NCBI RefSeq assembly: GCF_030463535.1
Contig: NC_132880.1
Span: forward strand, 26,124,487 to 26,188,486
Length of the DNA: 64,000 nucleotides
DNA from: Salminus brasiliensis
Lineage: Eukaryota > Chordata > Actinopteri > Characiformes > Bryconidae
Reading direction: 5' to 3'
The notes under the pieces are model-generated. The model ran no database searches. It was not told the DNA's origin and worked only from the letters and a program-made list of their open reading frames with translations. The translations under genes were made by a program, and so were the position numbers. This document shows, piece by piece, positions 12,901 through 15,900 of this stretch. Position 1 is the first letter of the stretch; each line of letters starts with the position of its first letter.

Positions 12901-15900
12901 CAGAGGTGGGCCAATGTTAGGAGTCTTGCCCAAGGACTCTTATTGGTGTAGCGCCCAGACTGGGAATCGAACCCCAGTCTCCCACATGGTATGGTAGCTC
13001 ACTGGCAGGTAGTGGTGTTATCTGTTGCGCCACACCAACCAACCACAGTGACAGTGACAGTGGCTTGTAGGGGGCCAGATTTAGTTCAAGGGAAGATTTG
13101 ATATCAAAGCTAAAGTGAGATGGAATCAGATGGGATCAGATGTGGTGTTTAAGCTACTCTGACAATTCAAAAAGTGTTCGCGAAATGATCAAGAGATCAT
13201 CAAGAACTTCAGCTTGAGAGACGTTGTATACCAGCCTCACTCATTTTTCTCTCCACCACAGAAAACATCCTTGGAGAACACTCTGTCGGAGACTCAGGCA
13301 CGGTACTCTATGCGGTTGTCCAGCTATCAAACACAGGTAAGGTGATTTGGGAACCACAGAGAACATAGAGACCACGGAAATGTCTTGCCTTGTCTCAGAG
13401 TCAACATCATTTTCACTGAAGATGCCAAGAGACTCTTGATTTGACTTAAGCAGGCACCCAAAGACTTGAGACCCAACTTAGGCTCGCACTCAGAGACTCG
13501 ACTCAGACTGAAATCCTAGAGACTAAAGACTTCGCTTGGGCATGCTTCAAAGACAATTAAGATTATACTCTGACTCCCATCCCAGACTTGACTCTGACTT
13601 GCTCCTCAGATACTTGAGACTCAAGACTCAACTCTGAATCGCAAGCCAGACTCAACTCAGACTAACACCCCAGACGCTCAAGACTCGACTCAGACTCACA
13701 CCCCAGAGATTCAAGACTTGACTCAGACTCACACCCCAGAGATTTAAGACTTGACTCAGACTCACACCCCAGAGGCTCAACACTTGACTCAGACTCACAC
13801 CCCAGAGACTTAAAACTTGACTCAGACTCACACCCCAGAGATTCAAGACTCGACTCAGACTAACACCCCAGACACTCAAGACTCGACTCAGACTCACACC
13901 CCAGAGATTCAAGACTTGACTCAGACTCACACCCCAGAGGCTCAACACTTGACTCAGACTCACACCCCAGAGACTTAAAACTTGACTCAGACTCACACCC
14001 CAGAGATTCAAGACTCGACTCAGACTAACACCCCAGAGACTCAAGACTCGACTCAGACTAACACCCCAGAGACTCAAGACTCGACTCAGACTAACACCCC
14101 AGAGACTCAAGACTCGACTCAAACTCACACCTCAGAGATTCAAGACTCGACTCAGACTCACACCCCAGAGGCTCAAGACTTGACTCAGACTCACACCCCA
14201 GAGACTCAAGACTCGACTCAGACTCACTCTCCAGAGACTCAAAACTCGACTCAGACTAACACCCCAGAGATGCAAGACTCGACTCAGACTCACACCCCAG
14301 AGGCTCAAGACTCGACTCAGACTCACACCCCAGAGACTCGAGACCTGCACCCCAGACTTGACTCAAACCACATGTACTGGAGACTTAACTTGGACTTCAA
14401 CGTGCTCTCAGAAACTCAACTCAGACTTCAAACAACACAGAGACTTGAGACCCATTTTGTCGAAACGTGACGACTTGTGAACATTTATTTAAACATCATT
14501 GTTTGTTGACTTTAGGTAACCAACCTGGAAGAGCAGCTGGCTCAGCTTCGCAGTGATCTGGAGCGACAAGGCCGCGAGTACCAGATCCTGCTGGACATCA
14601 AGACTAGACTGGAGCTGGAGATCGCAGAGTACAGGAGACTGCTGGATGGAGAGACCACTACGTGAGTCCTGAAATGTTCTCTTATTTCTTTTATTTTACG
14701 TTACTTTGTTAAGTTTTAACATTTCTAAAAAGTAACAAGGTTGGGAAAAATGAGAGAAAATAAAAGGTGTGGCTTTTCCAATCCCCTTCAAGGACTGCAT
14801 CAGTAAACACAAACGGTTACACAGTAATTTATGACAACCTTATACAGTGGACTAAGGCACTGTCACTATGATCAGAAGATCACTGGTTCGAATCTTGGTA
14901 ATGCTACTAGCCATCTGCAGCTGAGGCCCCGAGACTGACCAGTGTGGGTAGATAGCGCTCTCCCCCTTACATTGCTTCATTACGGTGCTGGCCGTCACTG
15001 GCATCTGCAGGCTGGTGTGTTGAAGCTGGGTATGAGGCGCTTCCTTCTGGGTGCAATGGTTGCCCGAAAAATAGTTTGAAAAATAGTTTGCCTTCACTGG
15101 GGGGCATCTTTTGGGTGGTGAGGGGGAAACAACCTACATGTTTGGATACTAATTAGCAGTCCAAATTGGGTAGAAAAAGGGTGAAAATCCGATTAAATTT
15201 ATATGACACAAAAAACATGACATTTGCAAGACGTTTCATTTAAAATCCACCCCAGAAATATTTTGCAGCGTCTACTGCACTTGCATAGGTGGGAATACTG
15301 CTGTTCTGGAAAAAAACATTTAATTTGGCTGGGTGTTGTGTCTGGAATTTTACTCCTTTCTCACACACTAACTGATGAGATCCTATAAAATCTCCAGTTC
15401 TGTGCTAACTAGCTTAGCCACAAAGGCTAAATCACCACCTTTTCAGTGTTTTCTGGCATGCCGTATTTAGATGTTTGTCTGTCTTGAACGGCTCTTAATG
15501 TCTGTTAGTTTAGCCTGTAGACAATTTTGTTTTCCCAGAAGTTCAAGAAGTGCATCTCCAATGTCCATGTTCATTCGGAGGCACAGCTCCACACTTCTTG
15601 TACCCAAGTGGTGATTTTCAGACCTTTCTTATATCCGACCGAAATCCGTCTGTTGTGGTGTCTGTGCATTCCATTGACCCCTTGTTCTCATTGCTTCACT
15701 GAACCGATTTTCACAGCTTTTTCCAAATTAGTTTCTAATTAAACATAGAAAGTCTTGAAATGTGAGGGACTACAATCAAGCCAACAGAGACCACAGTTTT
15801 TATGCGGGTTTGATGACATCCTGGAAAAGATGAAAAGTTTCCTTATCCAGAATTTTTGTTTCATGCTTAGAGTCAGTGAATGGGGATGATTTTGATTTGC

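What the first reader, a model, noticed from the sequence alone, without database searches (positions are those of the whole stretch)
13262..14661. Keratin exon 6 split by an extra intron
The sequence shows exons of 75 and 146 nt with canonical splice sites that sum to 221 nt, the size of the undivided exon 6 in type I, II and III intermediate-filament genes (established knowledge). All other internal exons have the ancestral sizes. AGGTAA occurs at both intron ends and the upstream junction CAG|GT is a proto-splice site. This fits intron gain by duplication of an AGGT-containing segment or by an insertion. Whether it is old and shared by related fish keratins is unknown to me.
Basis: partly seen in the sequence, partly recalled or inferred. 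Interest (0 to 1): 0.75.

Follow-up and report, generated by a model that had tools for sequence, protein, structure and literature searches.

The report
Old extra intron in fish keratin
A keratin gene of a South American river fish carries one intron more than the usual vertebrate pattern; a sister gene in the same genome and distantly related fish have it at the same spot, so it is an old, inherited and otherwise ordinary addition.

Summary
A type I keratin gene (+ strand, 9960-16026) has its canonical 221-nt exon 6 cut into 75 + 146 nt by a 1,179-nt phase-0 GT-AG intron (13337-14515) between Gln340 and Val341. The spliced product equals an NCBI protein of Salminus brasiliensis over all 424 aa.

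The intron is not private to this gene or fish. From a protein tree I predicted which Salminus paralogues would be split; the genome then agreed: P0228 (same clade) is cut at the same codon boundary by 91 nt, P0210 (sister clade) is not. A metagenomic ORF with an exon 6 identical to seabream (Sparus aurata) proteins holds 31 extra codons exactly there. Across the Salminus genome, 38 of 40 exon-6-type matches checked run unbroken. Best reading: one gain in one teleost keratin lineage before otophysans and percomorphs parted.

The AGGTAA repeat is explained by the splice sites and is no duplication scar. The 33-bp minisatellite is probably a later filling. The nearest known intron, intron 1 of neurofilament-type genes, has the same phase but lies two codons upstream (8 of 8 genes).

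The parts
9960..16026 (+). type I keratin gene, coding part, eight coding exons, 424 aa
   Evidence: 100% over 424 aa to P0174; Filament domain 78-387
13262..13336 (+). exon 6a, 75 nt
13337..14515 (+). extra phase-0 intron, 1,179 nt, CAG|gtaagg ... ctttag|GTA
13648..14344 (+). 33-bp minisatellite, 21.1 copies, inside the extra intron; GACT-rich decayed copies on both sides
14516..14661 (+). exon 6b, 146 nt
12690..12815 (+). exon 5, 126 nt
15918..16026 (+). last coding exon with stop TGA 16024-16026

Best explanation
It is an ordinary spliceosomal intron, gained once at a CAG|GT (Gln|Val) proto-splice site in coil 2B of one teleost type I keratin lineage, after that lineage split from its sister paralogues and before Otophysi and Percomorpha separated, and inherited since. 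Splicing removes it and restores the usual rod. The early intron was probably short, about 90 nt as in two of the three copies seen; in the window gene a GACTC-type minisatellite later expanded it to 1.2 kb. Shown: the split and its junctions, the same junction in a second Salminus gene and in a sparid, undivided exon 6 in the other Salminus genes checked, and the clade joining the split genes. Inferred: single origin, date, early length. How the intron was created left no readable trace.
For: Exact junctions and identical NCBI protein. P0021: exon 6a 25/25 and exon 6b 46/46 identical to Sparus aurata P0252, P0274, P0276, with 31 extra residues at Q|V that these proteins lack. Clade of 24 rows with P0174, P0228 and P0252, support 100/98 (SH-aLRT 98 in the 71-row tree). 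The test was written down beforehand: P0228 proved split at the same boundary, 91-nt intron CAG|gtgagg...ctgcag|GTA; P0210 and two more C3 genes proved undivided. 38 of 40 exon-6-type matches in the genome contiguous. P0228 branches before the other otophysan rows of the clade, so the intron should be ancestral to them. Twelve of 59 ORFs have a non-keratin leader ending in Q before exon 6b, about four genes. P0179 (Boleophthalmus) ends exactly at the boundary while P0285 of that species goes on; P0148 (Xenoophorus) lacks the first residues of exon 6b.
Against: Only three split genes were seen with both sides of the intron, two of them from one species. Some ORFs that cross the site unbroken are nearer, by one to three residues, to the split clade than to the sister clade (P0112, P0063, P0117, P0066, P0019; 0.89-0.91 identity), so undivided members or losses in that clade are possible. 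Exon-6b-only ORFs could not be assigned to a clade. The sister clade itself is less well supported (96/84; 81). No transcript was mapped.
Confidence: 0.82

Rival explanations
1. Parallel gains: the intron arose independently in the otophysan and the percomorph lineages at the same favoured CAG|GT site.
For: The site reads Gln|Val in 111 of 118 full-length hits, so a proto-splice site may be widespread (codons not seen); neurofilament-type genes have another phase-0 intron only two codons away, so the area can take introns.
Against: Same codon and phase in two Salminus genes and a sparid that fall in one clade with support 100/98; one event explains them.
Confidence: 0.12
2. The window gene gained it alone, by duplication of an AGGT segment or an insertion.
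For: AGGTAA at both ends.
Against: Shared with P0228 and a sparid; no similarity of the ends beyond shuffles.
Confidence: 0.01
3. It is intron 1 of type IV (neurofilament) genes, an ancestral intron kept here and lost in other type I-III genes, or slid by six bases.
For: Same phase and only 6 nt apart.
Against: In 8 of 8 neurofilament-type genes of this genome the intron lies after YQ-type residues two codons upstream, with a gapless alignment on both sides; exon 6 is undivided in the type I, II, III and lamin matches checked, so retention would need many losses.
Confidence: 0.03
4. Assembly or annotation artefact around a tandem array.
For: The array of 697 nt is a place where assemblies can fail.
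Against: Open frame of 424 aa and identical NCBI protein; the paralogue without an array has the same junction.
Confidence: 0.02

Closest known systems
Type I keratin genes with undivided exon 6 (for example P0210 of the same genome)
   Same: Gene family, rod, other exon sizes; exon 6 codes the same stretch
   Different: Exon 6 is one piece in P0210 and is two pieces here
Intron 1 of neurofilament-type (type IV) genes; shared with type VI genes according to PMC2075511 (section 5 read)
   Same: Phase 0, coil 2B, after a Q residue in most copies
   Different: Two codons upstream in 8 of 8 genes of this genome; those genes lack the type I-III introns around it
Intron gains in ray-finned fish serpins (PMC2746811) and melanocortin and other receptors (PMC3151243); passages seen
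   Same: New introns at proto-splice sites in single vertebrate gene families
   Different: Those passages place the gains after the split from zebrafish, in fish with compact genomes; this one is shared by an otophysan and percomorphs, so older

Membership tests
type I keratin | Intermediate-filament rod and closest relatives type I keratins | tested here: met
   Filament 1.5e-99; listed hits named type I keratins
type I keratin, canonical gene structure | Undivided 221-nt exon 6 | tested here: not met
   75 + 146 nt
U2-type spliceosomal intron | GT-AG ends, consensus 5' site, in-frame joining | tested here: met
   joined product equals P0174
U2-type spliceosomal intron | Removal seen in transcripts | not testable with these tools
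   no RNA data; only the NCBI protein model
gained (not ancestral) intron | Absent at this site from the other intermediate-filament genes | tested here: met
   38 of 40 matches contiguous; the two others are the window gene and P0228's gene
type IV intron 1 | Same codon boundary | tested here: not met
   two codons upstream in 8 of 8 genes
intron made by AGGT tandem duplication | Intron ends resemble the adjoining exon ends | tested here: not met
   230 and 63 of 500 shuffles as good

The most novel reading that the evidence does not exclude
A few codons of coil 2B (YQ.Q|V) are a recurrent landing site for phase-0 introns: the type IV line took one two codons upstream, and a stem teleost keratin took this one independently. 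The keratin intron would then be an unusually old vertebrate gain, usable as a clade marker, that stayed near 90 nt in some copies and was turned into a 1.2-kb minisatellite in another.
Probability: 0.45. Interest if true: 0.45.

Novelty: new member of a known kind. Interest (0 to 1): 0.35.

Why it matters
Intron gains are called rare in vertebrates, and the fish cases whose passages I saw fall after the split from zebrafish (PMC3151243, PMC2746811). A gain shared by otophysan and percomorph keratins would be older, and gives a simple marker that parts two teleost type I keratin clades whose naming is tangled. It can be dated with gene models that already exist.

Tried and rejected
Rejected: AGGT duplication; origin of the minisatellite from exon 6a (401 of 500 shuffles as good); identity with neurofilament intron 1 (my own lead; not met). 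A profile score meant to place exon-6b-only ORFs failed its leave-one-out test (18 of 20 sister-clade rows wrong) and was not used. The genome-contig scan gave one locus, L001, a bacterial gene that I read as a peptide chain release factor (no family search), not keratin. The viral-contig scan found no relative. tblastn with the protein found no second keratin in the window.

Papers: searches listed none whose title or start of abstract describes this intron. In PMC1896152 and PMC2174949 the words intron and exon do not occur; PMC8733776 has nothing on exon structure (passages). PMC3882266 has a figure of the zebrafish krtt1c19e exon structure that is not held. Zimek 2003 and 2005, Padhi 2006, Lewis and Cowan 1986, Dodemont 1990 and a 2012 review are not held, so earlier description cannot be excluded.

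Full report
What is there. The window carries one keratin gene, on the + strand. Its coding exons are 417, 83, 157, 162, 126, 75, 146 and 109 nt (the last with its stop at 16024-16026; one search printed it one base longer), joined in an open frame of 424 aa. The product is 100% identical over its length to P0174, 'keratin, type I cytoskeletal 50 kDa [Salminus brasiliensis]', which names the fish (Characiformes) and shows that an independent gene model uses the same junctions. The window lies at C3:26124487-26188486 of a 1.07-Gb assembly. Residues 340|341 lie in coil 2B, opposite IQEM|IGSVEE of human K14 in 3tnu.

The split. 75 + 146 = 221 nt. The intron is 13337-14515, phase 0, CAG|gtaagg ... 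ctttag|GTA. By a simple matrix of mine (recalled frequencies) its 5' site is the strongest and its 3' site the weakest of the gene's seven. It is filled by a 33-bp repeat in 21.1 copies, 13648-14344, with GACT-rich decayed copies on both sides. Neither intron end resembles the neighbouring exon end beyond shuffles.

Other fish. Short ORFs called from fish genomic DNA betray exon limits. Of 120 listed hits to the 74-aa exon 6 (343 in all), 86 carry it unbroken behind a leader ending in Q, as an in-frame cag acceptor gives; 9 have other leaders, 24 start inside the exon and 1, P0021, is broken. P0021 has both parts of exon 6 identical (25/25, 46/46) to three Sparus aurata proteins, with 31 extra residues between them at the same boundary: a 93-nt intron in a sparid, inferred from protein letters. 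A search with 42 aa of exon 6b (59 hits) gave 12 ORFs with a non-keratin leader ending in Q straight before Val; nine are near-copies, so about four genes. P0124 (leader MQ) is ambiguous and not counted. Two annotated proteins agree: P0179 of the goby Boleophthalmus ends exactly there, while P0285 of that species goes on, and P0148 of the goodeid Xenoophorus skips the start of exon 6b.

The tree and a test. In a tree of 44 proteins the Salminus, Sparus and Boleophthalmus proteins fall in a clade of 24 rows, support 100/98, in which percomorph and otophysan rows are sister groups (the 71-row quick tree has the same clade, SH-aLRT 98). The sister clade is weaker (96/84; 81). It holds P0236 and P0217, the nearest named relatives of the undivided ORFs P0008 (66 of 71) and P0003 (67 of 71). 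This gave a test, noted before the genome could be read: of two further Salminus proteins, P0228 lies in the first clade and P0210 in the sister clade. In the genome P0228's gene is cut at the same boundary, CAG|gtgagg ... ctgcag|GTA, by a 91-nt intron; P0210's gene and two more on the same chromosome have exon 6 in one piece. In all, of 40 exon-6-type matches taken from the genome search (which scored 127 of 293 candidates), 38 are contiguous over the site, among them eight that I read as type I from their helix-end motif, and type II, type III and lamin-like ones; one of the 38 runs into an assembly gap beyond the site. The two exceptions are the window gene and P0228's gene. Since P0228 branches off before the other otophysan rows, and Sparus is a percomorph, one gain before the otophysan-percomorph split explains the pattern.

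What speaks against. Only three split genes were seen with both sides of the intron, two from one fish. Of 141 ORFs that cross the site unbroken, a few (P0112, P0063, P0117, P0066, P0019) are nearer to the split clade than to the sister clade by one to three residues, so undivided members or losses may exist. Exon-6b-only ORFs could not be placed. No RNA was mapped.

How it works and arose. Splicing removes it and the protein is unchanged. The site is Gln|Val in 111 of 118 full-length hits with the search motif, so a CAG|GT proto-splice site, as in other fish gains (passages), was probably ready; the codons of those relatives were not seen. AGGT at both ends is then expected; AGGTAA needs only a GTA valine codon before Thr. 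The creation mechanism left no trace. Lengths of 91 and 93 nt in two copies suggest that the minisatellite came later.

Nearest known intron. I suspected identity with intron 1 of neurofilament genes, because tanabin has exons of 804, 125 and 65 nt and shares its first two introns with those genes (PMC2075511). The genome decides: in 8 of 8 neurofilament-type genes (my reading from sequence) that intron is phase 0 but two codons upstream, as in FQ|EAIGELE against YQTQ|VTNLE. So the two are neighbours, not the same.

Verdict.

Noticed in passing
window 13648-14344: 33-bp minisatellite of 21.1 copies whose strands are open for 159-163 codons; it is intronic, so the frames are chance products of the repeat.
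   Followed up: partly
window 850-903, 12844-12897, 59110-59163 (-): Three Rfam UnaL2 LINE 3' elements above the gathering score; the second lies in intron 5 of the keratin gene.
   Followed up: no
window 1693-2648 (+) and 19885-20220 (-): Broken transposase-like frames; the first matches the Tc3/Sleeping Beauty-type domains in Pfam, the second was read by eye only.
   Followed up: partly
window 24093-25646 (-): Open frame of 517 aa with seven C2H2 zinc fingers.
   Followed up: partly
window 50495-50959 (-): Frame of 154 aa with two C2H2 zinc fingers.
   Followed up: partly
window 62672-62891: 30-bp tandem repeat, 7.3 copies, length a multiple of three, open in frame.
   Followed up: no
window 32663-33440: 41-bp minisatellite, 19 copies.
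   Followed up: no
protein P0217: A fish keratin listed as a partial protein of Enterococcus faecium: contamination of a bacterial record.
   Followed up: no
L010-L013 (C3:26318000-26372500): Small type I keratin group about 140-190 kb beyond the window on the other strand, mixing a split gene (P0228) with undivided ones.
   Followed up: partly
L056 (C7:28661500-28662700): A type II-like exon runs into a stretch of N.
   Followed up: no
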